Assembly (NCBI RefSeq): GCF_032854445.1
Contig: NC_088302.1
Span: 28,060,330 to 28,124,329, forward strand
Reading direction: 5' to 3'
DNA length: 64,000 nt
Source: Liolophura sinensis
Lineage: Eukaryota > Mollusca > Polyplacophora > Chitonida > Chitonidae
Shown here: piece by piece, positions 86 to 22,910 of the stretch
Layout: every line of letters starts with the position of its first letter
How positions within the stretch are numbered: position 1 is the stretch's first letter
The notes under the pieces: generated by a model
What the model was told of the DNA's origin: nothing
Database searches by the model: none
The model's input: the letters and a program-made list of their open reading frames with translations, nothing else
Made by a program: the position numbers and the translations under genes

Positions 86-3000
86 GTAAATCTATAGCAG
101 TTTGCATTTCTGATAACTGCATGAAATTTTTTGGTATGTTCATATTTGTTTTCCCAAATGTAATTCTCATAAGCTAAAATATAGAATGACTACAGCATGG
201 GAAGCAAACGCAGAGCAGTGACAACAGTGTGATGGTTGTCAGATGGTCACATATAGCCAGTGAAGTACGGTACTCTTCATTTACCTCTTATCTCCATAAC
301 TACTGGGCAAATTTCATAAATCTTGTAAATGAACTTACTGGTCACCAAAAGGGGAGTAAATTTAATGAAGCTTCATTCATGGGCCCACTTGTTGGTGCCC
401 TAATTCAGAATTGATGGCATTCACTGCAACTGACTCTTGATCATTTTCCTTAGGTCACCGTTCATTTTTGATTTATTAGTTTTTACAAACAGTAAAATAT
501 TCAATTAACCTGCTAAACCACAAAATTTTGCAAACTGTACATCTGTATGTAGTCTGCGAACCCATCCAGTTATATGATGAGTTTTGGAGATTTGGCTTTT
601 TGGTGAGGACGTTGTGTAGGCTTTTTCCATGTTGTATAGTTCCAGCTGGTAGATTTCTTCATGGGCTTTTTCATTGCTCTACTTGTACATGTGGCCATTA
701 GATTTCTTCACATTCTCTTTCATTGCTTTACTTCAAGCTGTTAGATTTCTTCACAAGCATTTTCATTCCTGCACTTCATGCTGTGAGATTCCTTCAAGAG
801 CTCTTTCATTGCTGTACTTCATGTTGTTAGATTTCGTCACAAGCTGTTTTATTACTCTTCTTGTAGCTGTTAGATCCCTTCAAGAGCTCTTTCTTTGCTG
901 TACTTCATGTTGTTAGATTTCGTCACAAGCTGTTTTATTACTCTTCTTGTAGCTGTTTTTGATTTGTTCACAGATCTTTCATTGCTGCACTTTGTGCTGT
1001 TAGATTTCTTCACAGCTCTTTCTTTCATTGCTGTACTTCATGTTGTTAGATTTCGTCACAAGCTGTTTTATTACTCTGTTTTATCCATTATATTTCTTCA
1101 CAAGCTCTTTTATTGCTGCAGTTCAGACTGTTAGATTTTTTCACAAACCGTTTTATTACTCTCCTTGTATCCATTAGATTTCTTTCTGAGCTCTTTCATT
1201 GCTGCACTTTATGCTGTTAGATTTCTTCACAAACCATTTTATTACTGTCTTTGTATCCTTTAGATTTCTTTATAAGCTCTTTAATTGCTGCACTTTATGC
1301 CATTAGATTTCTTCACCAACTGTTTTATTACTCTCCTTGTACCCCTTAGATTTCTTTCCAAGCTCTTTAATTTGCTGCACTTTATGCCGTTAGATTTCTT
1401 CACAGGCTGTTTTATTACTCTCCTTGTAGCTGTTAGATTTCTCCATGAGCTGGGTGATCTGCTTCACTTCAATGATCAGCTGAAAGGACTGAACAGCTTG
1501 TACTTTCTGGACCCAGTCTGGTTATGTAACCTTCTCTCACAAGTTGTTGTAAGTGAGGTGAGTTCAAATTCTTACCTTCTGCTTTATGACATACAGAACA
1601 CACTGTCACACATTTCTGATTAATAAATAAATTACATACTGTAAATGAATCTTTATTACCTTACATTATACAGTATAGCAGCAATAAATTTCACGTCAGT
1701 GAGTGAATTGGTGCAGCAACATACATGAATTAAGTACATCATTTTGTACCTCTCAGATGGCAAATAAACAATGATTTCCAGTTCATAGTAGTTTTTCCAT
1801 TGTGCCAAAATCTTGATAATTTTTATCACGTGTCAGTAGATTTTCAGATGAAAAATATCTGCATAGTATATAGTGTCATCGACTTTCACAGTATACTGCT
1901 TTTATTAGCGTTAAACTGAATGTGTACCGCAATGATCATATTCTTTCATTGGAGCAATGATTGTTTTGTTTCTGATGAAAATTGTTTTAGAAGCTAAATA
2001 TTGTTCTCTGGAAGTGAAGTTAATATTCAAAATCAGCACAGCAGATTATAGCTTAAAAAATACATGTATGTTAATGAGTTAATGCAGAAAGTATTTAACT
2101 AATTAAATCCCATGCATTGTTTTGCTTTGAAGAAAGCCCAGAAGTACATCCATAATGGCATAATACAGAGAGAGGACATGAAGTATTTGTTTGATGAAAG
2201 CCGATTTCCTCACGTTCACATGGACAAGTACATCCAACTGCTGGAGCGCTTTGAAATTACACTCATGTTGGATGAAGAAAAGTAAGGCTGACGAGCTGTA
2301 TTTTCTCTATGTATCTACAGCTACATGTATGTCTACATGTATGTATACTTGGGCTTTTACGTCGTACTTGAAATTCTTGTGTCATATGACAAACAAGGAG
2401 TCATTAGGTGTGTGTACATGTTTCCCTTGCTCTTATAGCAGGGTGAGTTCATGCCGCCAAAGTGCTGGCGCCACTGAAGTATCATGCCAAGGACACCCGA
2501 CATAACACCCCTTAGTCAGATTATGCTGACACCAGGCCAAATAATCCTCTTTCCTGGTTCTAACTGCTCAGTGCTGAGTAGCAAGGCAGCAACAAGCAGG
2601 CTACCATTCTTTAATTTGACCGGACCCAGGTTTGATCCCCCACCTCCTAGCTGTCTTTGATTTATTTATTTATTTGATTGGCGTTTTACACCATACTCGA
2701 GAATATTTCACTTATACGACGGAGGCCACATTATGGTGGGTGGAAACCGGGCAGAGCCCAGGGGGAAACCCGCAACCATCCGCAGGTTGCTGCAGACCTT
2801 CCCACGTACGGCCGGAGAGGAAGCCAGCATGAGCTGGACTTGAACTCACAGCGACCACATTGGTGATCCTGACTTTGAGGCGGATGCTATAATAATAAGG
2901 CTACCGAGATAATCCATGTATTTTCTAAGAAGCCTTTGGAAGTTCTGCATTTTCGTAAAACACAAAACCGTATAAATACAAATCCCAGCAATACATATGT

Positions 3001-6000
3001 GGCATGGCATGGTATCATTTTGCTTAGTTGAGATAGTCACAATGCAATGTATAACTCTTATGGAACTGATTGCATTAGATTGAGTATTAGGCTATGCAGT
3101 GTTAACTTGGTTTTATTTTTGTGTATTTACAGACTTCTTATACCAAGTAAAGTGTCCCAGGAGAAATTTGGCAGTGTACAACTCTCCCATAATCTCGGTG
3201 AAAAAATCTACCGTTTTTACAAAATGGAGTTCATTCCATCAGGATTCATGAGTCGACTGATTTCCAAAGTCCTGGGTAGCATTCCACGATTCACTGGCCC
3301 TACATGGAGAGTGACGCAAGAGTCAGGCTCAAGGGTCAAAAACTTGGCATCGATGAATAGAGGGTCGTTTCAACAGAGCTTGTGAGTGATTGTTGTGTTG
3401 ATCAATCTTGAGGAGTTACTGATTGATGTGTAATGCTATACTCAACAGTTTTACACTACAGTATGGCTCATTTTTGTGGCTGGGTCGTCTAGGGTATACA
3501 TCCCACCTGGCAAGTTAGTCGAGAACTGTTCAGAGCGTGATGTAAGATGCACCCCATATTGATGGAAGTCAGGGTCTACTGTCTTCAACAAATGTAAACC
3601 ATTCAAATTGCCATACCATTGACTACTTTATTGTTGTCATTTCCCATACAGTGAGAGAGAGAATCTACAAATGGTTATTTTTAAAGGAGAAGAAAACCTA
3701 AAAACATGACCCTATGGGCTGAAAAGAGCACATATTTTTTCTATCTGGTGATGCCTCTTGCATCATTTTACGATTTTTCCTCCTCATGCACGTAAAGCTT
3801 GAAAACGCAAAGCTGACATAAATGGCTGAGTCCAACGCCTCCTCCGTCTTTAACACCCTGTAATTTATGCTGGGGGTGTGTTGCCTCTCAGCCAGTGAGG
3901 GTCGTTAAAACTGCCGGCTTGTTCATGTAAACTCGGAACCCACATCCAACATAATGGTTTCCCGATCGGAAAAACTAACTGTATTGTTCGCTACCTTCTG
4001 GGAAGAAGAGTCTACCAGAATTGTACGAACTGCGCTTTGGTGGTTTCCGACAACAATTCTCCTCCTAACACAGAAGACTTCAGGACAAAATGGAGTTGCC
4101 CACTGCAGGTTTTGGCGCTGACTTTATTTATAATTTATCAACTTGAGGTACATATTAGAATTTTTTATGGCATGCACCTGCGATGAAATGCATACTTTTT
4201 TTCAATGGTATTTGATTTATATCAAAATTTTCTTCAAACAGTTCTTCCTTTAAGAACATTCAAATGTGGGAACATTTCAGCTGCTGTTGATATTATTGGT
4301 TGTTGAACCCATCAAGCAGTTTCTGACACGACAGTTTCTAATTAATTATGATACCAGTTATATTTAAGATTATAAAATGTTTCATTTTAAAAGTCAGTTA
4401 CTGATTATGTTATTGGTAAAAGATGTGTTGATACCTAGCCTCTCATACCTGGATTTTTCTTTTATTATATTATTTTATTATTAAGTGCAGAAATTGTTAC
4501 ATTTATTTCTGCACTTTTTCTAGTTGCAAGAGAAGTGGGAAAGGCTTTCGCCTGAAACATGTAGAACCAATCTATTGGCAAGAGGGCATAAAGGTGTCTC
4601 ATGAAGGAGGGCAGTTCATGGTGGAAGCCATCAAGTGGAGCAGCCAAGACCCAGATCAGAGCAGCCAATCAAACACAGGCATTCTTATCACCGTGCTGTC
4701 TGCCATCGGGGACTTTTCAGCTTTAGGATTTCTGGTGGATGAAATTGATAACCTCATAGAAGATTGGTACAGAGGTACACCTAATTCTTCTGTTCGCCCA
4801 CAGCACTCCTTTAAAAAATAATGAGACGATTTGAACCGTAGGCACACAGCATTTATCTTAAATATTCACATGTGCAGTATATAACATTTTGGCATATGAC
4901 AGATTACAATGGTGAAAGTTGGCTGTGAGTCATTGGGTTTTATCTGACCAATCTAAATGACAGGGTATACAGCTAACTTGATCATTACGATTTTTGAAAA
5001 ACTAACATGCTAGACTAACATGTACATATTTGATGGTAAGCAGCCCTGTTGTTAAACTATTGTCCAGACTGCGTATATGGCTCTTAAGATCAACAGGTCA
5101 TAACCAGATTTCATCACTAGAATTTGTGCATCTTTTTTTTTAAAGAATAACACTGATGTGACATTAATATCGAAAGCCATGTTCACATAGCAGTTTGCTC
5201 TATCAACTCATCAAGTAAATATACAAGCTCTGTGTGGAACAGTTTGTACTGTCTGACTAAAATTGATTGAAAGTCCACAAGTTTCGATATTGTTGCGATT
5301 CCTGAGAGGCATTGTAAAGTTTCCTACACAGTATTTATCCTATCTCATAGGAGACATTCCAGGCTCAAACTATAGATGTATGCCTTGCCTATCTCTCTTT
5401 GACAGGGTTAGAGGAAGGCATACAGTTTGCTCTCTGTCCAGACTGTTGTGGTGACATCTTCGACCTGGCGCAGGTCAATCATTTTTCAGTGGTGACCTGC
5501 GCAGGGGTTTGCCGAACCAACGACAGCATAACCTGCCCTATCACTCACAATAAGATTCCGCTGAAGAAACTAGTTCCAGAACTGATCCTAGCAGATTTGC
5601 CCAGAAGGTTTCTAATCGATGGGAAAGATCTTGAGATAACAGTTGGGAAGGACAGTCTTCTGGGAGAAGGCTCATTTGGATGTGTTTACTCAGGAAGCTA
5701 TAGGGAGGACACTGTAGCTGTGAAAGTGTTCCCCGTAAGTCTGTTTGAGCTAATCAGAGCCCCATCTGATGCTGGACCCGATGTGGCCAGAGAAACATCC
5801 GGCACTTGGCATGGAGAAAACTGTGACAAGATGGACGAAGGTTTAGCTGGAGGAACCAATGACAGTGGGGCAGAAAGTATCATGTCATCATTAGGCTCTT
5901 CCTCCCAGGTGTCCAACCAGTCATATCTCTCCCATGGTTCCTCAAACACGACAGATTTACTGGAATCAAAAGGACTGAAGGTACATGTAATGTTTTTAGC

Positions 6001-7503
6001 TTGCCTGTATAATGTTTAAATAGAAAATAATGTATCTTTATAACATTTGGTGAACTTGCTTATTTCCACCTTAGTTTCTTTTTACCAAAATAGTGGCCAT
6101 GTAGGAAGTCTTAAGCAGGATTTTGCATAGATTGGAGTAAATGAATATTCCTGATAACATGTTCTGTTTGATAATATTACATTTCAAAAGTTTATCAGAA
6201 TTGATTGTTTGATATTTAATGTTGTCACTGTCACAAAACAGTACGTTCATTTTAGCAAATTCTCACACAATTATGACATTTACACACCTTTTTGACATGC
6301 GTTGGGCAATCCCCAAACAACACCAAAAAAAATCAAAGTTCAAGTGAAAGAGGAGAAAAAGTTATTCCTAAATGTGGTCTTCAGTATTTTTTCTGATTTT
6401 TCCTTAAGGAGAAAAGGACACTTGAAAATAATTTTTGTATGGTGTGTATTTGGGACCACCTTTTGGTATTTGTACTCTCTGTTTAATAATGTCATAAATG
6501 AGGGTGTAACACAGGTTTAATAAATTCTTTTGCACTAAAATTTGTTCTTTTTCAGCTACCAAATATATTAAACCTCAATTTGGATCATATTTATATTATT
6601 AATATGTTCATAAATATTATCATAATTTAAGTTAGATGCATATGTGTCAATATAAACAACAAATTTACATTCATATAAATTATTATGCAACAAAGATAAA
6701 TACCAAAAGTTGGTCCCAAATACCCATCATACAAAAATATTTTCAAATACACTTTTCTCTTAAAAAAAAAATCCAAAAAATATTAAAGATCATATATGCA
6801 AATAAGTATTGACACTCATTTTTATGTTTTCTTCTCCTTTAAGGTTCAGAAAAAAAAAGAGTAACTGTTGCTGATATATGTTTTTCTTTTTTTTTTTAGG
6901 TGTATTATTCTCTGAGTGAAATGAGAAAGGAGGTGGCCATGCTGAGTAAGCTGATTCACCCCTGTGTTTTGTCCCTGGTGGGCATCTGCCTGTTCCCCAC
7001 CTGCCTTGTTCTAGAGAGGGCACCCCTGGGCAACCTTAGGGAAGCCATCACAGAGCACATGGACCCATACCTTCATGACAATGTCATCTCCAAGATCAAA
7101 AATAAAGTCTTCCCTTCTGTATTCTCCAGAAAACTGACCTACAAAATTATTTTCCAGGTAAATAGTTGGGTACTATTACTTACCATACTATGCAGATGTA
7201 AATAGTAATATTAATTGTTCCTTTAATAATCTAATAGTATTTGTAAAATAAAAAAAGTAAAATGAAAAAAATCTGTCAATCGCTATCAAGCCCACACGTC
7301 TTTATACATGTATGTTGAACCAAAATTTGTACTGCAAGAAAGATTTTTCTCTGCCCATCCCTTTGTATAATTGTTTGAGGCCAAATAGTCTAAGAGAGAA
7401 TCCCTCCCCACCTCCCAGTTATAGCAACTGCTTGTGTACACAGCTATTCAAGGGAGATAATCTGTCAGCATGATATTCACAGAGGGTTATTTTTCCTACT
7501 GGC

Positions 7504-7536
<33 letters not shown>

Positions 7537-10500
7537 TATGTACATGTAGATACTGGGTTTCTTGAGTATGGTATAAAACACCAATCCAATAAATAAGTAC
7601 AAAAAAGTACATGTAGATGATTGTATGGTATTTGGTAAATCAGAGATCATGATGTGGCCGTAATAACTCAGAAGCCTCTCACCAATGAGTTTGCCGTGAG
7701 TTCAAGTCTTCTTCTTCAGCTGTAAGTGGAAAGGTCTACCAGCAACCTGCAGATGGTTGTGGGTTTTCACCGGGCTCCGCCCGCTTTACTCCCAGCGTAA
7801 TGCTAGCCGCAGTTGTTTAAGTGAAATGTTGTTGAGAACGACGTAAAACACCAGTCAAGTAAATAAATAAATCATGAGGTGGTGCATATAAATATTTAAA
7901 GCCAGTTCATATGGCCCATCATACAGTACTTGAAATAAAGTTTATTAAGCTGTCTCTAGTCTGGCCACACTCTAATTTGTCAGCGCCTCCAAGTTTGTAT
8001 GATTAAATGATTGATTATGCAATTCAACCTGTCTGTTCAGATTACCAAAGCCCTGAACTACCTTCACTCACTAGATGTCATCTATCGGGATCTGAAGCCG
8101 GCAAACGTTCTTGTGTGGTCCATGGACACTGCTGACACTGTCAACATTAAACTGTCTGACTATAGCATCTCTCAGTTCAGCACCCCCCAGGGGCTTGCCG
8201 GTTTCTGTGGCACACCCGGTTACCAGGCCCCAGAAGTCTGTTTTGGTGTGGCTTATGATGACAAGGTGAGAAAACTGAGGATTTGCCATTTGGATAATCA
8301 CCTGAAGTATATATTACATGCACTGCCTTTTACATTTTTTTCTGTGAAGTGTTTACAGTCAGTGAACAATTTGAGCCTCAGTTTGAACATATGTTGTGTA
8401 AAGAGATGCTTATTATAATATAGCTATTATGCTTTTCTTTATTAAAGTTATATAGGTTTTTTCTCAAGATGTTTTTCTCACATGCCAGGCCAAACAGTTG
8501 CACAGCTCCGGTGAAAATAGCTTGGGCCATGTGACATTAAGGTTAATACTACAAATAAATACTTCTTGCTGAGGTCAAAGTTCATGTCTGGCTTGCTAAA
8601 CTTATATCTTAAGACTATACAGGAGGCCTCCGTGGCTCAGTTGGTTAGCGCACTAGCGCAGCGTAATGACCCAGGAGCCTCTCACCAATGCAATTGCTGT
8701 GAGTTCAAGTCCAGCTCATGATGGCTTCCTCTCCTGCCATGTGCGGGAAGGTCTGCCAGCAACCTGCAGATGGTCGTAGGTTTCCCCGGGGTCTGACCGG
8801 TTTCCACCCACCATAATGCTGGCCGTCATTGTATAAGTGAAATATTCTTGAGTACGGGGTAAAACATCTATCAAATAACTAAATAAATTAAGACTATACA
8901 GAGCCAGATACAAAGAAACTTTTCAAAAGCGCTTTCCGTCAGGTGCCTGGAAATGGAATAATTAGATTTTTGAAATCACACCTCACCTTATTTTCATGAA
9001 AAACAAGATTATGCCGCAAGTCAGAATTACATGCTGTACACATGAAGGAAGTGAAGTCAGTATTTGGAACTGCTTTGTTGTCAGGTGGACATCTTCTCCT
9101 TTGGGATTGTGGTGTATGAGATTTTGACAGGTGTTATACCCTATCGGAATGAGCCCGCTAGATGCGTTACTAAAGCTGTGCGAGATGGGGTGAGGCCACG
9201 TTTGCAGGTAAATATATGATGTAGCCATAAACAACACTTGTATAACTCATTATGTATACCAGTTCATGCTGGCTTCCTCTCCAGTCATACGTGGGAAGGT
9301 CTGGCAGCAACCTAGGGATGGTCGTGGGTTTCCCCTGGGCTGTGCCCGGTTTCCACCCACTATAATGCTGGCCGTCGTCGTATAAGTGAAATATTCTTGA
9401 GTACAGCGTAAAACACCAATCAAATAAATAAATAAATCATTATGTATAGGTAGGTATCTGTCATCTTTCTCCCTGGTTCTCTATACTAGAGACCGGTCCA
9501 GATAGCACAGTTGGTAGAGCGTCCCGTAGAGCGTCCGCTTTGGGACTGGTAGATCCAGGATCAATCCTTGATCGAGTCACACCTAAGACTTTAAAAGAGG
9601 AAGTTGTAACTTCCTCGCTTGGCGTTCAGCATGAAGGGGATAGTGCAACGACTGGTTGACCCGCATCAGTATAATGGCTCGGGTGGGGTGGCTTACTTGC
9701 CTTCGGTAAGTCGTCTCAGTGAAGCAGCACTAGATAAAAGAGCGGTGGAAATCCGTCCTGCTACAAGGAGGCACATTACACATACATGCACCCTAAGGAC
9801 TCCTTCGTCGTCATATGACTGAAAAATTGTTGAGTACGACGTTAAACCCCAAGCACTTACTCACTCACTCACTCACTCACTCTATACTAGAGTCATCGTT
9901 CACAGGACTCAGAATCTTGGTGGCTTATGAAGACGTCTTGATAGTATGACTTTGGAACAATTGTTTAGATCCAAATTCTTATAGTATAATTGGCTTAATA
10001 TCTAAGAAGTCTTCCTCATACTGAATTAAAGCATGCAAAATGTTCTTACTCCTGTGAACCAGATGCGAAGACTACATATATTAAACCCTAAAGGTGCAAG
10101 TACCTTGATTATGAAGCTTATTAAAGCCTAAATCTACATGTACTTTGATTATGAAGCCTATTAAAGCCTAAATCTACATGTACTTTGATTATGAAGCCTA
10201 TTAAAGCCTAAAGCTACATGTACAGTGATTATGAAGCCTATTAAAGCCTAAATATACGTGTACTTTGATTATGAAGCCTATTAAAGCCTAAAGCTACATG
10301 TACAGTGATTATGAAGCCCATTAAAGCCTAAAGCTACATGCACCTTGATTGTGAAGCTTATAAAGCCTATTAAATGCTATGTGTATCATGATTATGAAGC
10401 CTATATAATGCCTAATATGACATGTACTTGTTCAGGCTTCAGGTACATGTATTTTATGGGCACAGGTCACAAATGTTCCTGTAGTGATATTTCTGTGGGC

Positions 10501-13500
10501 AAAGATATGCTACATAGATTGGTCGGTTTGCTTTATGGTGCTGGCATAACCTTCAATATAAATCATGTTAAAGATGAAGGAATTTTTAACCACTTTAGCC
10601 ACTAGTTAAGAATTTCTAGCTACTTTCACAAAATTTCTGTGTTCTAGCACCTTAAGGCAATGTGATTTTCCTACAAAATTAGTTTTTGTGAAAGTGGGCC
10701 CTGAAATCTCTACCAATAATATATGTAGCCTTGTTTCTGAGTGAGTGAGTGAGTGTTTGGGGTTTAAAGTCGAACTTAACAATTTTTCAGTCATATGATG
10801 ACGAAGAATCCTTAGACTGCATGAAATGTGCCTCCTTGTTGCAGGACGGATTTCCTCCACTCTTTTATCTAGTGCTGTTTCACTAAGAGGACTTACCGAA
10901 GACAAGTAAGCCCCGAGCCATTACACTGATAAGGGTCAACCAGGCTTTGCACTATCCCCTTCATGCTGAACGCCAAGCGAGGAAGTTACAACTTCCTCTT
11001 TTAAGGTCTTAAGTGTGCCTTGTTTCTGCTGCATATACATGTGTAATATATGAAACGTAGTGTTTTAAAGTGAAGAGAATGAAGATGGCTACAAATGCTG
11101 ACTGTTTTTATCATGTTCAAACAGGCCAAGGACTACAGTTTCGATACAAGAATGCCATTTTTTGAGGCTCTTATGGAGAAGTGCTGGCAGCAGGACCCCA
11201 TGTCTCGACCTAACACAACAGCCATCCTCACTCAGATGAAAGATTCTGCATTTCTCTGTCTGGAAAAAGAAATCCACAAATCAACCGACCAGAAGCATGG
11301 GAGTTTAGACTGCATTTTCCTCTACTGCTCAGAGGTAGGCCAAAATGACATATTTTCACTTGAAATTATCATGCTTCTGGGTGACAGGTGATAATTTTGT
11401 GGCTATCTCAAGGTGCTGGATGCAAAATATTATATCGGGCTTCCCCAAAAATTTTTCTCAATAACCAAATGTATAGGTGAAGAAAGTGCCTGTGAAGGTC
11501 ATTGATGCCCAGAGGTAAAGCATGGTGAGATGTGCACATCTTAATTAGAATGGGCACATTTATATGTAATTGTTTTTTATTTCCAGTAAATATTTTTTTT
11601 GGCTTCATATTGGCATGCATGTATTATATTTATTTATCATTTTACTTTTGACTTTTATCATTTTAATGAATTCAATGGGGAAAAATCTGGAATGTTTTCT
11701 CAGCTATAGATTGTAATGGTATTTTCTTCTGATGCTTTTCCTTCCCTTAAAATGTATATACATACATGTATATGCCACCAATTCCAAATAGAATTTCATC
11801 TAGTCTTCCAATCTCCTTCATGCTCAGTGTTTGTCTCCCCCCTACAGGTGAAGAACTGTGACTTGGCATGGCTGTGGGAGGGTTGGGGGACGTGCAGAAA
11901 ATATCATATTGTGGACGTCAGCCATGGTCAGTATGTGGTGCCGAGTGAACCAGCAGCAGGGCCTCAAGTCACTTGTGCCACCAAGGTCAACGATTACATA
12001 TGGGTTGGTAACAAGGTAGGACGCCATGCTATTTAATGTTTTGTACTTTAATTAATTTTCGCTCTTCTCTCTGTCACCAAACCTGTCTGGCATTCCTGTC
12101 GCCTCATTTTAGCTTTTAAATGAAATTTTCCCCCGTGATATATATGCATGTACATCCCGAAGTCACATGAACACAATCTGGATAAAGACATAGACACGAA
12201 CATAAACCTTTTATTTAAGTTTCATTTGAGTGCATTTTGACGCAGTAATACCTTAATAAAGAGCAAATTTCATAATGAGTGGACGAGGTTACCAAGGTTT
12301 TGTCTGATGGCAGACAGGGAGGTGAAAGGTTGACTGCTCAAGCCTGTAGCGCCCTCTGAGTTGCCATGGCTTTTAGCATTGCAGCCTTTTTGAGTGGAAA
12401 AAAAGGGCAGTATGAGAGTTTGATATGGGCCAAAGCAAAGTTACATGTACACGTAAGTGTTAAAAGATCATTGACCATTAAATGTACTTAACCGTGGTGA
12501 TTCAGCTATAATGTTGCTATCTAATATTGGACAGTTTTAAAATCTTCGGCATGTCCTTAAGAGAACATAATTATTAGTGCATGGAACTAGCTTGTATGGT
12601 AAACATATCTGACATCAGCCTCCAATATTGATTGGCTTTGGTGTGAGTGATGCCTCAGTGTGATGATCAACCAACGAGGGCTCAGCAGGGTATTCAATTT
12701 AATGAGCATATTACATGTATGACAAAAAAAAAACAATTGATGTGTGTAAAATATCAGATTTTACAAATAAAATAAAGTCCACTTTTGTTGTGTGATACCT
12801 GGTAGGAAATATTTATTTTATCTTTCTGCTGATCAAATTAGAATTTATTTTATAGTGGTTTTTATTTCCATCCTTATATTTCAATCATACACTGTTACTG
12901 CCTAATTATAAAGCAAGTCAACAGGCCCATTAACTTGTTGCCACACTTATAATATCTTATATACCACACATATCTAATGTCCACAATGCATGTAATAAAA
13001 TGGACAGCACGTGTAATAGTATTGACTTGGCACGTAATAATATTCACAGAACATGTAGTCATATGCACAGTAATAATGTCATTATGCACAGTAGTAATAA
13101 TATGCACAGTACCAATCCATGCACAACTTGACTGAGAACGTGGTGAGACCAACAGAGCTCATGGACATCCATGTTGGTCAACAGTAAGCCTTAGGTAGAA
13201 CTGTTATGCAAATTACCTACTCTTTTAACTGTTCTTCTTATTTTCTTCAATTCTTTGAAAAAAATTGTCTTTAAATATTTTTCAGTGTATTTTTTTTTAT
13301 CTGTTAAAGCTGATGTCAAGGGGAATGGTCAACTATTACAGATTGTATAGCATTGTTACCAATGTACAGTGTTTCATTCACGCCCTCAGGTAGCCATGTC
13401 CGTCGTACCAGAGGTATTTCATACTTCAGGGTTTCACAGGATACTTTCATTTGAAGGATACCAGCCACTTTTTGTTCTCTCTTATGATCATAAACGTTGC

Positions 13501-16500
13501 TTTCACAAGTTTCTAAACTGTAAGTCTTTTGCAAAACACGTAAGGGGTCTCTCGGTGCAGCATACATAGACCCCAGAAAAGGACGCATTTTTGTGGGGAA
13601 AATCAAGCCTTTTGTGTAGCTGAATGATTCATTGTACATTGGATCACTGTCCCAAATGTGGGTCTCATTTTCCTGGAAAAAGCTAATATCAAGAAAGGGC
13701 CATTCCCATGGAATTCCTTTAATGGGCCTTGATAAACTGGAATAAAATTTCCATCGATGCTTCTGTAATGTACATAAGTAGAAATGCGGTTTGATGAGTT
13801 CCACGGCATGGTAGAGTTTTCTTGACTGTGTCATGTTGATGAGGACGTCAATGTCGTCATCCCAGGGAACCATACCATGGTGACGGTAAGACCCAAGTAA
13901 AGAACCAGCATAGAGAATGTAGGTAATGCCGTGGACACTGCAGATTTTGTGGAAGTTTTCCATAAGTTCTCGAAATATCCTTTTCTGTGTGCTGGAGAGA
14001 ACTGGCAGAAAGTGGTTATGAATCAACCCAGGGTAGTTCTCTTTGTACTTCCTGATCGTTCTGGAGTTTAAACTGAGAAATTGTAGAAAGACTTGGAATT
14101 TCCGTCTGCTTGTAACTGATTTTGGAGTTGCAGAAAGTGCCACTGTCTTTCTCCATGTCGTTATTGCTTGAATGTTCTGTTGGCTTTCAGCATCTCTAGT
14201 TAAATTACCAGTTGATACTGGGCAAGTTTTATTCGCCGTTGTTGTCACAAACGTCACCCCAGTGGTACTGGTCTTCAGTAACCAAACTGTCATTAGGATC
14301 CCGTACAGTATACAGATTATCTGAAGTTTCACCGGTGTAGACAGGAAACGCTTGGAACTTTGACTTGCTGATGTGATACCAAACATTTTGTAAAGAATAT
14401 TGTACAGCTTCTATATCTGATGTTTTGCGAACCAACAATTCCCTTGTTGATATTCCTGTATGAGCAAATTTCACCAGCGGCCCTGAGAACATCAAAAAGA
14501 CAAAGAGAAGGTTTGAGAAAGCTAGTATGTGTCAAAGTTTTCAGACTTCTACCTGCCTGGCAACCTGGCCCATGTTGTTTAAGCTACAATCATACTATCC
14601 TTATTGACCTACTTTGCAACAAACATGATCATATAAAACATGAAACAAGTTCAGATATTAATTTTGATCAAGTGAATAAATGAAAACATGATTTGGTACA
14701 TCCTGTGTTTGCTTTACCACTGTAGGAAAAAATGAATTTACGTGCCAAATAAGGATGCAGGCCAGTCACTGACTCTTTGCTCTATAAGTACATGTACGAA
14801 CAACAAAACAGTGGTCATACAGGCATTTGCCATTTACCTGTGCCAACAAGTTTACTTACTCAAAACGCTGCTTCACAGCCTAATAAGTCCAAAACCAGAA
14901 TGTGTTGAGTTTCACAATTTATATATGCTGTGCACATCTTACATGCTGTAATTTCAGGTTAATATCAGCCATACTTCCTACTATAGTTCAGTATTGTTCA
15001 TTTCTCTATACCTTCCCATCTTGTTATTCTTAGTCAACTTGTAAAATTGAAATATCTCAGTGGTAAAGGTATTAACACCAAACTTTGGGGTCTTAATGAG
15101 GAACATATGAAGCAACTTTTGACATTTTGTGCTGTTTTGAAAGTCATATGATTTGGCCGCCATTTTGAATTTTATTGATTATGCTAAAAAAATCTTCTTC
15201 TCCAAAACGGCTAAGCCTATCGAGATAAACTTTTCGTGTACAGTTTTAAGGTGAATCACCCTATCCATATTGTAAAAAACTTTCGGTTTGGTATGCAAAT
15301 AAAGCCAAAACTGACCAATGAACTTGGCCCAAAAGTAGGCCAATTTTTAAAACTGTTTAAAATCATTTTACACTCAAGTGTCTGGTGCCCTCAATTTCAA
15401 AACTACAAATCTGCAAGAATTATTTTTGTACTTTGTGTTGTTTTCATGTTATGACCCAAAAAACCAACATAAATTTGACAAAACCATCCTATGTAAATAA
15501 CACGGGAGCTTTGTGCTAGACTGCATGAAACCATTGGCTGTAGTTTACCCTTGGAATGGTCATCAGCTGTGCAGCAATGCATTCTTTCTTTTGATCTCCT
15601 ATCAGCAGAAGATCAAAGCCGCCTATGCTCTATGCTAGTTCTCAGTATTTGGCCAATTGTAAATGATGCCTGGCCATCTAGGGTTCATATCCAGTACATT
15701 CCTTTCTATTTTTTCTGGGGTTTTTGCATGTTTTTTCCCATTATCATGAAATTTATAGACATCAAGCTACCAGAAGCGTTAAAAATCTAGAGCGTGGACC
15801 TCGACAACACTGTTGGATAACAACTTTAATTTTATTTTGGAATTTTAGATGGTAATGAAAAATCATTTGCCATTCCCATATTTCACCTATAATATGGATG
15901 GATAAGATTTTATTACTAAAAAAGATAAGGACTACACATATATATTGCAGATTTATTTATTTATTTATTTGATTGGTGTTTTACGCCGTACTCAAGAATA
16001 TTTCACTTATACGACGGCAGCCAGCATTATGGTGGGAGGAAACAGGGCACAGCCCGGGGGAAAACCACGACCATCCGCAGGATGCTGCAGACCTTCCCAC
16101 TTACAACCGGAGAGGAAGCTAGCATGAGCTGGATTTGAACTCATAGCGACCGCATTGGTGAGAGGCTCCTGGGTCACTACACTGCGCTAGTGCGCTAACC
16201 GACTGAGCCAAGGAGGCCCCTATATTGCAGATTTAATAGAACATTGCACAAAGCTAATGAAAAGGAGATGCATTTAAAGCCATGTATAGAATATATGCCA
16301 AAGCAAATCTTGAAATATTGGTAGCATTTTTTAGTTAAGAGAACAGAATGTGTTGCCTTCGTATCTTTAGAATTAGTAGGGTAATTGTAAATGTATTGTG
16401 CTGGTTACGTCCTGCTATACCCTCTGTAATTACATTAATTATAACATGCTGTAGGCTACAGCTGTCATTAACTCATCTTACACTTGCTATCTTAATGAAT

Positions 16501-19500: not shown

Positions 19501-22500
19501 AGATGAACACTGTGCTGAATTCTGTACATCCAGTAGGGCATTTGAGATCTGAATGTCAAATTTGTTGCCATGCAGCTTCACACATCCATGTCATTTTCTT
19601 TATGGGACATGGGGCCTCCATGGCTCAGTTGGTTAGCGCACTAGCGCAGTGTAATTACCCAGGAGCCTCTCACCAATACAATCGCTGTGAGTTCAAGTCC
19701 AGCTCATGCTAATGGGAAGGTCTGACAGCAACCTGCAGATGGTCGTGGGTTTCCCCCAGGCTCTGCTCGTTTACCACCCACCATAATGCTGGCCGTCGTC
19801 GTGTGAGTGAAATGTTCCTGATTACGGCGTAAAACATCAATCAAATAAATAAATAAATAAATTTATGGGACATAGTTTATCTTTGTCCATAAGACTGGCA
19901 GATTCTTTTTTCTTTTTTAGCAGTAGTGAAAGGTCGATTTCCTGCACTTCATTCATATATACATATATATTCTTATATTATACATATTGATTAATAATGT
20001 TAATGACATACATGCAATTTGGTTGCATTAATATCATTTTGTTGATTTGGAATATACATGTAAAAATGTTGCTACTTGTGTCATATTTTATTATAATTTT
20101 GTTATGCTGATATGCTGAAGTATTACACGTATACTTTCTCCATGGCACATCGGTGACCTAGGGACGATCGTGGGTCGCCGTCATATAAGTGAAATATTCT
20201 TGAGTACACCGTAAAACACAGTCAAATAAATAAATCTATGGCAGATTGACATGAAGCTTTAAATTTTGTTACAATTTTACTCATGAAAATTGGTGTGACT
20301 GAATATTATCACTTAGCCAGATGTAGCACAGAGTATGTTAGTGTTCCCCTGAAGGACATGCTCAACACGGGTACTGATCTTGATTCTTACTGGTCAGGGC
20401 AAATGGACAATGTTGTTATAGTTTGTTACTGGATTGAGTCAGATACATGTGCATGTACGTATTTAGTGCATCACACTTCACCAGAAATAAATAAAAAAAA
20501 TTAAGAATGAATATTTCCAGAATACACATCTTTGCAATCTCTCATTGCGTTTGTTTCTGTTGTAGTCATCTCAGATAGAGGTATTTGGACAGAAAGGCGC
20601 TGGTGTTCCCACCTGCCTGGGAAAAATTGACACACCTGCCTCTCCCACCTGTTTGCTGTATCATAGAGTGGCTGACCCAGATCATAAACTACCCTGTCAG
20701 ACTCCAAGACCCTTACAGGTATTATACTAATCCATGTATCTACATGGGTATACACTTCCAGCTATCACTGTGGCTCAGTTAGTTAGCGCGCTAGCACAGC
20801 GTGATGACCCAGCAGTCTCTCACCAATGTGGTCGCTGTGAGTTCAAGTCCAGCTCATGCTAGCTTCCTCTCCGGCCATACCTGGGAAGGTCTGCCAGCAA
20901 CCTGCGGATGGTCGTGGGTTTCCCCCGGGCTCTGCCCAGTTTCCACCTACCATAATGCTGGCCGCTGTCGTATGGGTGAAATATTCTTGAGTACGGCGTA
21001 AAACACCAATCAAATAAATAAATAAATAAACTTCCAATTACCAAATCACAGACCAACGGTAAGCTCACATATCCAAATAAATACTCTTTATTTTATCATA
21101 AGAATTTCTTGGCTTCATTCAGCTACTAATGTATTGTTAATCTCACCACAGCCCAGTGGGCCCTCACCATGCAGTGAGGCCACAGTCTCAAGTCCAGTTT
21201 CATAACCTGTGGAAGCTTGGCTCAGATTCCTCCCACCACAATGCTGGTTGCTGATGTGCAAGTGAAATATTCTTGAGCACAATGTAAAACACCAATCAAA
21301 CAAATGAAAGAAATCCAGATTTTTTGGGAAAGGTGTGACTTTTAATAAGATGGTTCGTCAGGTAATTCTTGAGTACAAATTGACCATTACTCACCTTAGT
21401 TTTTATCCCCAAAAGAAAACCGTGTGAATATTACATGTAGGGGCCTGTAGGGCATGTTTGTCTGAAGAACATGATCCCTCTGCCTAAGGCAGAAACTTGT
21501 ACTCATTTATTTGATCTCACACTTTTGCTCTTTCTGTACCTCTTTTAACTGCCACTTCTTTTCCGTTCACTTCACATGTTCATGAGTAATTTGGAATGTG
21601 AAACTGTTCGTTTTTTGAAGGCCTACGTGGATTATGTGTACTGTGGTTTGGAAGATGCCAGACTGGTGGTGTTCTCTTCATATGAACAGAATCCTTTGCT
21701 GCGTCAAAAAGTCTCAAAGGAGCTTCGCTGGAGCCCCATTAAAACTCTAAGATTTGCCCATGACAAGCCTGTCACTAAAGCAATACAGTTGAATAATGAC
21801 ACCGAGTTGTGGTTGGCATGTGGGAGTGCTGTCGTTGTTGTTGGTCTTAGCACTCTCTTGGTAGAACACACTATTTCTGCAGTTTTACCGGAAACAGAAT
21901 GGGACACCACAGTCACTATTGCAGACATGGCCTTTTCTGGTAATAGAGTGTGGTGCTGTTGTCAAAACAGTTGCAAAGTGTTGGAAATAGATCCCATCCA
22001 AAAGTTACCTTTGTTTGTGTTTTCCTGCAAGGATGCAGCAGTTTATGACAATATTTCATCTCCCATCTCCAGCATTAAATCTCCAAAGGATGATGTAGAA
22101 AGCAAGGAACAATCAGCTGATGGTATATGCCAGTCTGTCCCAAGTTCCTCTGCTGGAGGAGACACTTCACAATTTAAAAATCCTGAACCCAGTGACTCGG
22201 CACTTTCCAAGACTGAGGATTCATCCCCTCCTCCAGTCTTACCCAGAAAACCAGCACTACCACCAAGACATTTGACAATGATAGATTCACAAGGGATCCA
22301 AAGAAAGGTCATAAAAACGAGGCCAACAAGCTTTGCTGCCTCCATGGTGACACCGCCATCGGATGAAATGGTAGCTGCAGACGCTCCTGATATTCCACCA
22401 CGAGTGCCGTCCAGAAGCAGTAAACCAGTTCTGCTTCGAGGTCCAAACAAGAAAAGCTTTACTTTGCCACGTACTGTGGAAAACAGTAGTGGTTCTGCAC

Positions 22501-22910
22501 ATGGAAGCCTTTCTCGAAAAGTGTCCCGCAGCATGGTAGAGAAATCGTCTGATAACTTTTCAAAAGAACCGCTGAGTAATACTTGCTTGTTGGTGGTGAA
22601 GGATACGCTGTGGATCGGCCAGAACAATGGTAATATTATTGCTGTGTCAACGTACCCTGTGTCAGACCATGGCAAAGTTATGTTTCTCATAAACCATTCT
22701 TCAGAAACTGCAGAAAACATTCCCAGAAGAATGGTTACAATGGATCACACCAGTAATAACTCTGTTTTATCTACCCATAAATTGGCTGATAATAGAACGG
22801 GACTGCTTTTATGGGAAGCCTGGGGTGCTGAAGAAGTGGAGGAAACAAGAGGTTATGCAATAAAACTACATAAATTGGAAAACGAACTTAGCAGAATGTC
22901 ATCAATATGA
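1..22910 (+). CDS. LRRK: LRRK-family Roco kinase, 3' part (13 exons, COR-kinase-WD40)
   Basis: Thirteen exons with GT/AG borders join to 3855 nt (1284 codons plus stop) without a frame break: 1-85, 1430-1548, 2133-2281, 3133-3381, 4524-4774, 5406-5980, 6900-7157, 8041-8265, 9085-9207, 11125-11334, 11848-12015, 20566-20718, 21621-22910. The order is COR domain (motifs [14 protein letters not shown] and [12 protein letters not shown]), then a kinase with glycine loop GEGSFGCVY, lysine in [13 protein letters not shown] catalytic loop and [10 protein letters not shown], then a WD40-like tail. LRRK proteins are large cytoplasmic Roco GTPase/kinases; human LRRK2 phosphorylates Rab GTPases. The kinase half looks more like LRRK1 (NVLVWSMD, DYxIS) and the COR half resembles both paralogues, which fits a single invertebrate LRRK. 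The repeats, ROC and the start of COR lie left of the window. The activation motif is DYS, not DYG. A LicD gene is nested in the large intron. Confidence 0.93.
640..1450 (+). repeat. Degenerate ~43-45 bp tandem array copying a splice acceptor and exon start
   Basis: TTAGATTTCTTCACAAGCT recurs every 43-45 bp (near 649, 697, 740, 786, 827, 870 and onward). Two subtypes roughly alternate: one followed by TTATTACTCTCCTTGTAGC, the other by CATTGCTGCACTTCATGCT. The last unit is the real 3' splice site (CTCCTTGTAG at 1420-1429) and the first codons of the LRRK exon at 1430. Several units still encode AVRFLHK- or [12 protein letters not shown] peptides. Short open frames at 674-1134 are products of this array. 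Confidence 0.85.
1430..1548 (+). CDS. LRRK: LRRK exon, COR domain
   Basis: The acceptor TTGTAG ends at 1429 and the carried G gives Ala. The product [14 protein letters not shown]...[13 protein letters not shown] aligns well with the COR segment of human LRRK2. The donor is GTAAGT at 1549. A second in-frame donor, GTGAGT at 1558, would add Val-Ser-Glu. Both are phase 0 and join the next exon. Confidence 0.87.
2133..2281 (+). CDS. LRRK: LRRK exon, COR domain
   Basis: Encodes [20 protein letters not shown] then a helix with [14 protein letters not shown], the COR stretch before the LIPS motif. The acceptor AG is at 2131-2132 and the donor GTAAGG at 2282, phase 2. Confidence 0.85.
2395..2645 (-). 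mobile_element. SINE-like repeat, family C
   Basis: Shares long blocks with 29600-29890, for example GCCGCCA...CACTGAAGTATCATGCC and GACACC(C/A)GACAT. The 3' tail is poorly preserved here. Family C is defined only by the copies in this window. Confidence 0.5.
2660..2866 (-). mobile_element. SINE family A, 5'-truncated
   Basis: Carries the reverse-complement tail (TTTATTTGATTGGCGTTTTACACC) and the body up to AGCTGGACTTGAACTC. The tRNA-like head is missing. Confidence 0.8.
3133..3381 (+). CDS. LRRK: LRRK exon, C-terminal COR
   Basis: Begins with [13 protein letters not shown] and contains [20 protein letters not shown], the COR-B signature seen in LRRK2 as MPYFPMGFWSRLINRLL. Acceptor TTTACAG, donor GTGAGT at 3382, phase 2 at both ends. 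Confidence 0.9.
3382..4523 (+). other. LRRK intron, no recognised feature
   Basis: About 1.1 kb of non-coding DNA. Only a short motif near 3681-3710 (TAAAGGAGAAGAAAAC) stands out; it resembles the end of the inverted-repeat element at 6384-6845. I see no gene, RNA or SINE here. Confidence 0.6.
4524..4774 (+). CDS. LRRK: LRRK exon, end of COR
   Basis: Encodes [19 protein letters not shown] and [20 protein letters not shown], like the YWR(Q/E)G and final helix (VDHIDSLMEEW in LRRK2) that close the COR domain. Acceptor TTTTTCTAG, donor GTACAC at 4775, phase 1. Confidence 0.9.
5406..5980 (+). CDS. LRRK: LRRK exon, COR-kinase linker and kinase N-lobe with Ser-rich insert
   Basis: A Cys-rich linker ([25 protein letters not shown]) leads to [14 protein letters not shown], which matches LRRK2 [12 protein letters not shown]. 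The glycine loop is at 5663-5680 and the VAVK lysine codon at 5723-5725. About 80 codons of Ser/Gly/Asp-rich sequence follow before helix C, where LRRK2 needs only about ten. Donor at 5981, phase 0. Confidence 0.9.
6384..6845. repeat. Inverted-repeat (MITE-like) element in LRRK intron
   Basis: The arm at 6384-6473 is the reverse complement, with some mismatches, of 6697-6784; both carry TTGTATG(G/A)TG then TATTTGGGACCA and TTTTGGTATTT. An outer block near 6820-6845 resembles 3681-3710. It ends about 55 bp before the next exon. No transposase is seen. Confidence 0.65.
6900..7157 (+). CDS. LRRK: LRRK exon, kinase helix C and hinge
   Basis: [20 protein letters not shown] supplies helix C with its conserved Glu and the HPCV motif; [18 protein letters not shown] is the hinge. 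It resembles LRRK1 (QEASMLHALQHPCIVAL). Acceptor is poly-T then AG, donor GTAAAT at 7158, phase 0 at both ends. Confidence 0.92.
7504..7541. repeat. AT microsatellite
   Basis: Runs of TATATATA broken by TATATGTATA, inside a LRRK intron and just upstream of SINE fragments. Confidence 0.9.
7555..7872 (+). mobile_element. Two SINE family A fragments
   Basis: 7555-7597 is a tail only (TTGAGTATGGTATAAAACACC). 7650-7872 keeps the B-box-like region (GTGAGTTCAAGTC), the body and a diverged tail (TTGAGAACGACGTAAAAC). Both are old copies. Confidence 0.7.
8041..8265 (+). CDS. LRRK: LRRK exon, kinase catalytic loop and activation segment (DYS)
   Basis: Contains [20 protein letters not shown] with catalytic Asp at 8089-8091, then [11 protein letters not shown] and [10 protein letters not shown]. 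The metal-binding motif is Asp-Tyr-Ser (8158-8166, AGC for Ser) where human LRRK1 and LRRK2 have Asp-Tyr-Gly. Acceptor TGTTCAG, donor GTGAGA at 8266, phase 0. Confidence 0.94.
8623..8887 (+). mobile_element. SINE family A, full length with target-site duplication
   Basis: The tRNA-like head GTGGCTCAGTTGGTTAGCGC (A box) and TGTGAGTTCAAGTCC (B box) lead to the body and an AAATAAA tail. It is flanked by the 14-bp duplication TTAAGACTATACAG at 8609-8622 and 8888-8901. Confidence 0.93.
9085..9207 (+). CDS. LRRK: LRRK exon, kinase C-lobe
   Basis: [16 protein letters not shown] is the helix F region with its Asp; IPYRN...[10 protein letters not shown] follows. 41 codons, phase 0 at both ends, acceptor TTGTCAG and donor GTAAAT. 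Confidence 0.93.
9259..9436 (+). mobile_element. SINE family A, 5'-truncated with target-site duplication
   Basis: Begins inside the body (AGTTCATGCTGGCTTCC) and ends in AATAAATAAA. The 12-bp duplication TCATTATGTATA lies at 9247-9258 and 9437-9448, so truncation happened at insertion. Confidence 0.88.
9492..9880 (+). mobile_element. SINE family B, full length with target-site duplication
   Basis: The tRNA-like head (TAGCACAGTTGGTAGAGC, GATCCAGGATCAATCC) is followed by a unique body and the tail TTGTTGAGTACGACGTTAAAC then (CACT)n. The duplication TCTATACTAGAG flanks it at 9480-9491 and 9881-9892. Confidence 0.93.
10090..10415 (+). repeat. 40-bp minisatellite
   Basis: About eight copies of a unit around GATTATGAAGCCTATTAAAG followed by CCTAAATCTACATGTACTTT. 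Spacing is 40 bp in the best-kept copies; edges are degenerate. Confidence 0.9.
10740..11016 (-). mobile_element. SINE family B, 5'-truncated
   Basis: The reverse complement of the family B body and (GAGT)n tail; the tRNA-like head is absent. The duplication GCCTTGTTTCTG flanks it at 10728-10739 and 11017-11028. Confidence 0.9.
11125..11334 (+). CDS. LRRK: LRRK exon, end of kinase domain
   Basis: [19 protein letters not shown] is the final kinase helix motif (CW..dP..RP). [13 protein letters not shown] matches the LRRK1 MKDPTF region. 70 codons, phase 0. Confidence 0.93.
11848..12015 (+). CDS. LRRK: LRRK exon, start of WD40-like tail
   Basis: Encodes [21 protein letters not shown] and [16 protein letters not shown], a beta-propeller-like strand pair. 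56 codons, phase 0. The following intron is 8550 bp. Confidence 0.85.
13316..14386 (-). CDS. LicD/fukutin-family nucleotidyltransferase-like protein
   Basis: One open frame of 356 aa from ATG at 14384-14386 to TGA at 13316-13318. Residues about 19-37 form one hydrophobic segment after a short basic N-terminus, which predicts a type II Golgi or ER membrane protein. The LicD signature lies at residues 158-180: [13 protein letters not shown] then VPWDDDIDV, with the acidic triad that binds metal in this superfamily (residues 176-178). Family members include bacterial LicD phosphocholine transferase and animal fukutin and FKRP, which transfer ribitol-phosphate to glycans. The acceptor here is unknown. 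The gene is intronless and antisense inside a LRRK intron, so it may have arrived by retroposition; no poly-A remnant was seen. The length fits small invertebrate LicD proteins, but an extra upstream exon cannot be excluded. Confidence 0.85.
   Translation of the reverse strand: MFGITSASQSSKRFLSTPVKLQIICILYGILMTVWLLKTSTTGVTFVTTTANKTCPVSTGNLTRDAESQQNIQAITTWRKTVALSATPKSVTSRRKFQVFLQFLSLNSRTIRKYKENYPGLIHNHFLPVLSSTQKRIFRELMENFHKICSVHGITYILYAGSLLGSYRHHGMVPWDDDIDVLINMTQSRKLYHAVELIKPHFYLCTLQKHRWKFYSSLSRPIKGIPWEWPFLDISFFQENETHIWDSDPMYNESFSYTKGLIFPTKMRPFLGSMYAAPRDPLRVLQKTYSLETCESNVYDHKREQKVAGILQMKVSCETLKYEIPLVRRTWLPEGVNETLYIGNNAIQSVIVDHSP
15956..16220 (-). mobile_element. SINE family A, full length with target-site duplication
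   Basis: Complete from the tail (TTTATTTATTTGATTGGTG) to the reverse-complement tRNA head (GCGCTAACCGACTGAGCCA). The 15-bp duplication TATATTGCAGATTTA lies at 15941-15955 and 16221-16235. Confidence 0.94.
19611..19861 (+). mobile_element. SINE family A, full length with target-site duplication
   Basis: The head CATGGCTCAGTTGGTTAGCG leads to a body with a small internal deletion and an AAATAAA tail. TTTATGGGACAT flanks it at about 19599-19610 and 19862-19873. Confidence 0.92.
20143..20236 (+). mobile_element. SINE family A, 3' fragment
   Basis: Keeps only GACGATCGTGGGT, GTCATATAAGTGAAATATTC and the tail TTGAGTACACCGTAAAACAC. Confidence 0.75.
20566..20718 (+). CDS. LRRK: LRRK exon, WD40-like tail
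   Basis: Encodes [20 protein letters not shown] and a Pro/Cys-containing stretch; SSQIEVF reads as the strand following VGNK in the previous exon. 51 codons, phase 0 at both ends, acceptor TGTTGTAG, donor GTATTA. Confidence 0.8.
20764..21030 (+). mobile_element. SINE family A, near full length
   Basis: Head CTGTGGCTCAGTTAGTTAGC, B-box region GTGAGTTCAAGTCC, body and AAATAAATAAA tail; inserted 46 bp after the end of a LRRK exon. Confidence 0.92.
21150..21302 (+). mobile_element. SINE family A, old degenerate copy
   Basis: TTCCTCCCACCACAATGCTGG and AAATATTCTTGAGCACAATG show family A identity; the 5' half is barely recognisable. Confidence 0.6.
21621..22910 (+). CDS. LRRK: LRRK terminal exon, WD40-like tail and stop
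   Basis: A 429-codon final exon ending in TGA. The first part ([49 protein letters not shown]) has propeller-like strands. A Ser/Pro-rich linker from about 22080 to 22560 includes [12 protein letters not shown] and [10 protein letters not shown]. The fold resumes with [19 protein letters not shown] and ends [14 protein letters not shown], matching the LRRK1 end (CLAVWRGWGAREF). Poly-A signal candidates downstream are weak; AATAAA at 24233-24238 is one. Confidence 0.9.
   Translation, partial: AYVDYVYCGLEDARLVVFSSYEQNPLLRQKVSKELRWSPIKTLRFAHDKPVTKAIQLNNDTELWLACGSAVVVVGLSTLLVEHTISAVLPETEWDTTVTIADMAFSGNRVWCCCQNSCKVLEIDPIQKLPLFVFSCKDAAVYDNISSPISSIKSPKDDVESKEQSADGICQSVPSSSAGGDTSQFKNPEPSDSALSKTEDSSPPPVLPRKPALPPRHLTMIDSQGIQRKVIKTRPTSFAASMVTPPSDEMVAADAPDIPPRVPSRSSKPVLLRGPNKKSFTLPRTVENSSGSAHGSLSRKVSRSMVEKSSDNFSKEPLSNTCLLVVKDTLWIGQNNGNIIAVSTYPVSDHGKVMFLINHSSETAENIPRRMVTMDHTSNNSVLSTHKLADNRTGLLLWEAWGAEEVEETRGYAIKLHKLENELSRMSSI

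What the first reader, a model, noticed from the sequence alone, without database searches (positions are those of the whole stretch)
8158..8166. Native LRRK kinase carries DYS, the equivalent of human LRRK2 G2019S
The codons GAC TAT AGC give Asp-Tyr-Ser in the activation motif, inside an otherwise intact kinase (glycine loop, VAVK Lys, [13 protein letters not shown]). Human LRRK1 and LRRK2 have Asp-Tyr-Gly. In LRRK2 the Gly to Ser change at 2019 is the best-known Parkinson mutation and raises kinase activity. A wild-type animal gene with this residue would be a natural test of that state.
Basis: partly seen in the sequence, partly recalled or inferred. Interest (0 to 1): 0.9.

Follow-up and report, generated by a model that had tools for sequence, protein, structure and literature searches.

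The report
Natural DYS motif in chiton LRRK1
A chiton's LRRK1 protein kinase naturally carries serine where a well-known Parkinson mutation puts serine in its human cousin LRRK2, but the chiton's own LRRK2 has the usual residue and the same change in human LRRK1 was reported to leave activity as it was, so it is a curiosity more than a natural Parkinson mutant.

Summary
Window 8158-8166 reads GAC TAT AGC, Asp-Tyr-Ser, in frame inside exon 8041-8265 of an intact LRRK-family gene, aligned with Gly2019 of human LRRK2. The genome matches the published assembly of the chiton Liolophura sinensis.

The gene is the chiton's LRRK1, not LRRK2: it is the first branch of the molluscan LRRK1 rows (SH-aLRT 89, quick tree) and has LRRK1-type WD40 and COR-B loops. 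The same genome has a separate LRRK2 and an LRRK3-like gene, both with ordinary DYG. In human LRRK1 the matching mutant, G1411S, had activity similar to wild type (PMC7886321), so a hyperactive G2019S-like state cannot be assumed.

Serine there is not unique among kinases: TbDYRK naturally has DFS and needs it (PMC7136023). Of 41 LRRK-type rows that I chose to align, 38 have Gly; the rest are this Ser, an Asn in Argonauta LRRK1 and a Glu in a degenerate Roco kinase.

Best reading: a real Gly-to-Ser change on the chiton line in an intact kinase, tolerated or mildly tuning. Reads, cDNA and other chitons were not seen (assembly: 14x HiFi, 1.24% heterozygosity).

The parts
8158..8166 (+). GAC TAT AGC: Asp-Tyr-Ser in the DFG/DYG position (P0001 Asp1514-Tyr1515-Ser1516)
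8041..8265 (+). exon with the catalytic loop (YRDLKPAN), DYS and GTPGYQAPE
   Evidence: AG/GT borders, phase 0; 53% identical to Potamilus LRRK1 over 85 residues
1..85 (+). window part of a COR exon that begins at -74 (upstream of the window)
1430..1548 (+). COR-A exon as modelled here; NCBI's protein has three more residues (VSE) at this exon's end
2133..2281 (+). COR exon
3133..3381 (+). COR-B exon; holds most of the extended COR-B loop, with a Ser-Phe (Phe1109) that MAFFT aligns to the Ser-Phe of fish LRRK1
   Evidence: role of the human Phe1065 from PMC10643122
4524..4774 (+). COR-B exon
5406..5980 (+). exon with end of COR-B, kinase glycine loop GEGSFG, Lys1303 (VAVK) and most of a long insert before alpha-C
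6900..7157 (+). exon with alpha-C Glu1399 and the stretch that follows it
9085..9207 (+). kinase C-lobe exon
11125..11334 (+). kinase C-lobe exon
11848..12015 (+). WD40 (beta-propeller) exon
20566..20718 (+). WD40 exon
21621..22910 (+). last exon: WD40 with a long loop (about 184 residues by my borders), stop codon at its end

Best explanation
The feature is most likely a genuine germline Gly-to-Ser replacement (GGC to AGC would need one transition) at the third position of the DYG motif of the one LRRK1 orthologue found in this chiton. Shown here: the residue in the assembly, the intact catalytic set, the placement with molluscan LRRK1s, and DYG in the chiton's LRRK2 and LRRK3-like genes. Inferred: the change arose on the chiton line, because nearly all relatives sampled have Gly; and the kinase is active. 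Ser can bond the conserved alpha-C Glu and beta-3 Lys and make the motif less mobile, but in the LRRK1 setting activity is held mainly by other brakes (COR-B loop, N-terminal domains), so the change is tolerated or mildly tuning rather than a hyperactive G2019S state.
For: Sequence and gene model. LRRK1 placement: human LRRK1 215.8 bits against 145.9 for the best LRRK2 chain; first branch of a 10-row molluscan LRRK1 group, SH-aLRT 89; long WD40 and COR-B loops (criteria from PMC10643122). Paralogues with DYG. Human LRRK1 G1411S similar to wild type (PMC7886321). Human LRRK1 brakes: COR-B loop Phe1065 and ANK domain (PMC10643122). The Ser bridge to Glu1920 and Lys1906 in simulations of LRRK2 G2019S (PMC8201809); the chiton keeps both residues, and so does human LRRK1.
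Against: No reads, cDNA or second chiton were seen, so 'fixed' is not shown. The G1411S result comes from overexpressed human LRRK1 with Rab7A and may not carry over to a protein only 38-40% identical to fish LRRK1 in the kinase. TbDYRK needs its Ser, so Ser can matter. The tree is a quick one with support under 95 for this group, and vertebrate LRRK1 was not joined to it with support.
Confidence: 0.62

Rival explanations
1. One reading: the chiton kinase is constitutively raised by Ser, a natural copy of the LRRK2 G2019S state. Ser bridges the motif to alpha-C and favours the closed active form.
For: Same residue at the aligned position; the bridging partners Glu and Lys are conserved (mechanism PMC8201809). 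TbDYRK's natural DFS loses most activity when made DFG (PMC7136023).
Against: Human LRRK1 has the same partners and G1411S did not raise Rab7A phosphorylation (PMC7886321). The gene is not LRRK2.
Confidence: 0.15
2. The Ser is one allele of a polymorphic site, or an assembly error, and the usual chiton residue is Gly.
For: Only 14x HiFi coverage and 1.24% heterozygosity, haplotypic duplications purged (PMC11068029, passages). The NCBI protein is from the same assembly.
Against: Substitution errors are rare in HiFi assemblies (recalled); the exon is otherwise clean and in frame.
Confidence: 0.12
3. The kinase is degenerating and Ser reflects relaxed constraint on a kinase that matters little in molluscs.
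For: Other molluscan LRRK1 rows also leave DYG: Argonauta DYN with YAD for HRD, Pinctada DLG.
Against: The catalytic residues are present and the 28 modelled exons keep frame and splice borders. DYG is exact in 8 of 11 molluscan-type LRRK1 rows (the 11 include two Mya proteins and two unnamed rows that group with bivalves).
Confidence: 0.08
4. A-to-I RNA editing of AGC to (I)GC restores Gly in the mRNA, so the protein is DYG.
For: Only that the A sits in a U-A-G context, which ADARs favour (recalled).
Against: No strong duplex: pairing probability 0.59-0.63, and the best inverted match within 4 kb scores 26, reached or passed at 55 of 300 control sites. Heavy recoding is known in coleoid cephalopods, not in chitons (recalled).
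Confidence: 0.02

Closest known systems
LRRK1 (human, 8e04; molluscan LRRK1s)
   Same: ANK-LRR-Roc-COR-kinase-WD40 order, long WD40 and COR-B loops, highest PDB score
   Different: Ser instead of Gly in DYG; YRD where human LRRK1 has FCD; a long insert before alpha-C
LRRK2 G2019S (Parkinson mutation)
   Same: Ser at the same aligned position
   Different: A different paralogue; the chiton's LRRK2 has DYG; the change left human LRRK1 activity as wild type (PMC7886321)
TbDYRK (Trypanosoma brucei), natural DFS kinase
   Same: Natural Ser for the DFG Gly in an active kinase (PMC7136023, passages)
   Different: DYRK family, not Roco; there Ser is needed for activity, here its effect is unknown
Argonauta hians LRRK1-like (P0018)
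   Same: Molluscan LRRK1 with the same Gly replaced (DYN)
   Different: Asn, and YAD for HRD

Membership tests
LRRK1 | ANK, LRR, Roc, COR, kinase and beta-propeller in one protein, no ARM repeats | tested here: met
   Pfam Ank_2, LRR_8, Roc, COR-A, COR-B, Pkinase, Beta-prop_LRRK2; no ARM family among the 17 listed
LRRK1 | groups with LRRK1 in a tree | tested here: inconclusive
   With 9 other molluscan-type LRRK1 rows at SH-aLRT 89, apart from the LRRK2 and LRRK3-like groups; vertebrate and cnidarian LRRK1s left unresolved beside them (31 of 41 rows used, motif columns masked)
LRRK1 | long WD40 loop (LRRK1-specific, PMC10643122) | tested here: met
   About 184 residues by my own borders; the paper's exact borders were not reproduced and no LRRK2 was measured beside it
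LRRK1 | extended COR-B loop with autoinhibitory Phe | tested here: inconclusive
   Loop length met: 43 residues against 41 in two fish LRRK1s by my borders. Phe unsure: MAFFT aligns chiton GSF with fish YSF, phmmer does not align the Phe with human Phe1065; the two downstream phosphosites are not conserved
LRRK2 | orthology to LRRK2 | tested here: not met
   A separate chiton gene joins Biomphalaria and Octopus LRRK2 at 100
LRRK2 G2019S-like state | Ser at the aligned position | tested here: met
LRRK2 G2019S-like state | raised kinase activity | not testable with these tools
   Published human LRRK1 counterpart is not raised (PMC7886321)

The most novel reading that the evidence does not exclude
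In chitons the LRRK1 activation switch has been rebuilt: Ser locks the motif 'in', as proposed for TbDYRK, and control has moved wholly to the COR-B loop and the N-terminal domains. Molluscan LRRK1s (Ser in this chiton, Asn in Argonauta, DLG in Pinctada) would then be a natural series of altered DYG switches.
Probability: 0.15. Interest if true: 0.55.

Novelty: new variant of a known kind. Interest (0 to 1): 0.33.

Why it matters
It gives a native animal LRRK with the G2019S residue and an internal control (LRRK2 and an LRRK3-like gene with DYG in the same animal). If assayed, it could help show why Ser activates LRRK2 but not human LRRK1. It does not by itself show that an animal lives with a hyperactive LRRK2.

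Tried and rejected
Second LRRK1 copy in the genome: none seen with a bivalve LRRK1 or an octopus LRRK2 as query; both screens score only the best candidates, so this is not proof. A chiton-specific partner change for Ser: the residue before the alpha-C Glu is Lys here, but it varies elsewhere too (Gln, Arg, His, Lys), so no covariation is claimed. RNA editing: no duplex support. Other chitons or shorter transcripts: protein searches with 463-aa and 137-aa queries listed no chiton sequence (several rows are unnamed). A print mention of a natural LRRK with this Ser: none noticed in the listings (titles and abstract starts only).

Papers: PMC7886321, PMC8201809, PMC7136023, PMC11068029 and PMC4017136: passages only. 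PMC10643122: passages and section 12. PMC12441733: whole text. All others: search listings only.

Full report
What is there. Bases 8158-8166 read GAC TAT AGC and lie in exon 8041-8265, whose frame gives [13 protein letters not shown]. I built a 28-exon model across the window edge, with AG before every exon, GT after each but the last, and consistent phase. Pfam finds ANK, LRR, Roc, COR-A, COR-B, kinase and beta-propeller in the matching NCBI protein. That protein, P0001 of Liolophura sinensis, 2196 aa, equals my model (2191 aa) except for MED at the start and VSE at one COR exon end. The genome held here (632 contigs, longest 96,433,062 bases) matches the published chiton assembly in number of scaffolds and longest scaffold; the totals differ by about 31 kb (609,464,459 against 609,495,693; PMC11068029, passages). 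The species was later corrected from L. japonica to L. sinensis (PMC12441733).

The residue. phmmer aligns the motif to DYG of human LRRK1 and of human LRRK2, and to DYS in LRRK2 chain 8tzc. Glycine loop, Lys1303, Glu1399, YRD Asp1491, Asp1514 and APE are present. I chose 41 LRRK-type rows for an alignment (39 of the 135 proteins fetched, and two chained chiton paralogues): 38 have Gly, one Ser (this gene), one Asn (Argonauta, P0018) and one Glu (P0035, which also has YRT for HRD). Rows left out of that count include three LRRK2s with DYG (P0051, P0054, P0055) and eight Roco-type rows with NFE or SFE, so the share of Gly depends on the choice. Of the 18 rows in the LRRK1 set, 16 have Gly; P0006 (Pinctada) has DLG, with Gly kept. 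Over all 135 fetched proteins, many not LRRKs, one HMM-aligned domain each gave 74 DFG, 41 DYG, 2 DFS, 2 DLG, one DYN and one DYS; the other 14 rows had other letters, 9 of them NFE, NLE or SFE and some of the rest probably misaligned. The two DFS rows (P0025, P0029) showed DFG in the BLAST alignment, presumably another domain.

Which LRRK. Three LRRK genes turned up in this genome. The window gene matches human LRRK1 at 215.8 bits against 145.9 for the best LRRK2 chain. A second, with matched pieces at C7 46.249-46.270 Mb, reads INVKLSDYGISRLATLYG and joins Biomphalaria and Octopus LRRK2 at 100. A third, at C1 56.015-56.043 Mb, reads VVKLSDYGISRS and joins a Babylonia protein at 100; I call it LRRK3-like from its place beside LRRK2 and from the LRRK3 clade described in PMC10643122, not from a direct test. 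In a quick tree of 31 of the 41 rows, with the motif columns masked, the window gene is the first branch of ten molluscan-type LRRK1 rows (SH-aLRT 89; 91 for the nine others), as expected for a chiton orthologue. The ten rows left out were P0013, P0031, P0034, P0035, P0041, P0043, P0046, P0050, P0056 and P0121, to save time. The tool warned of long branches (ena32, the outgroup, and a sponge row) and of odd letter make-up in the Argonauta and sponge rows. Vertebrate and cnidarian LRRK1s fell beside this group without resolved support. The gene also has a long WD40 loop (about 184 residues by my borders), a feature that PMC10643122 finds only in LRRK1s, and a COR-B loop of 43 residues against 41 in two fish LRRK1s.

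What Ser should do. In simulations of LRRK2, Ser2019 bonds Glu1920, which pairs with Lys1906, and favours the closed form (PMC8201809, passages). The chiton has both partners. So does human LRRK1, and yet G1411S, the LRRK1 equivalent, had activity similar to wild type while K746G and I1412T raised it about 5-fold and 2-fold (PMC7886321, passages). Human LRRK1 has a COR-B loop whose Phe1065 plugs the kinase back pocket, and a dimer-dependent ANK brake (PMC10643122). MAFFT aligns a chiton Ser-Phe (Phe1109) with the fish LRRK1 Ser-Phe, but phmmer does not align it with human Phe1065, and the two later phosphosites are absent, so that brake is likely but not shown in the chiton. I therefore think the chiton change is tolerated or mildly tuning, at about 0.6; the step from sequence to activity is inference.

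Precedent. A natural DFS kinase, TbDYRK, has been tested: Ser to Gly left about 13% activity, Ser to Ala about 70%; DFS was counted in 2.5% of T. brucei and 0.4% of human protein kinases (PMC7136023, passages). So a native Ser here is uncommon but known among kinases, and in that kinase it matters. I noticed no report of one in an LRRK in the listings.

Limits. I saw no reads, cDNA or second chiton. Assembly coverage is 14x HiFi and heterozygosity 1.24%, so the AGC may be one allele. A DNA search for a duplicate exon did not complete. Protein searches with shorter queries listed no chiton sequence. An editing account (AGC to IGC) was looked at and has no structural support.

Noticed in passing
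13316-14386 (-): Uninterrupted 356-aa open frame on the opposite strand inside a large LRRK1 intron, with a LicD-family match (E 5.8e-15): probably a nested gene.
   Followed up: partly
26630-28765 (-): 711-aa open frame matching copper amine oxidase (E 9.8e-91).
   Followed up: partly
37624-38916 (-): 430-aa open frame with a Cupin_8 domain (E 1.2e-32).
   Followed up: partly
P0018 (Argonauta hians LRRK1-like): DYG replaced by DYN and HRD by YAD: a second molluscan LRRK1 with the motif glycine replaced.
   Followed up: partly
P0035, P0036, P0042, P0044, P0049, P0057, P0058, P0062, P0064: Nine unnamed Roco-type proteins (sources ena or lgn; COR domain listed) with NFE, NLE or SFE instead of DFG, likely pseudokinases.
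   Followed up: no
60177-60857 (+): Open frame made of tandem repeats of about 25 residues ([25 protein letters not shown]), likely a repeat array rather than a gene.
   Followed up: no
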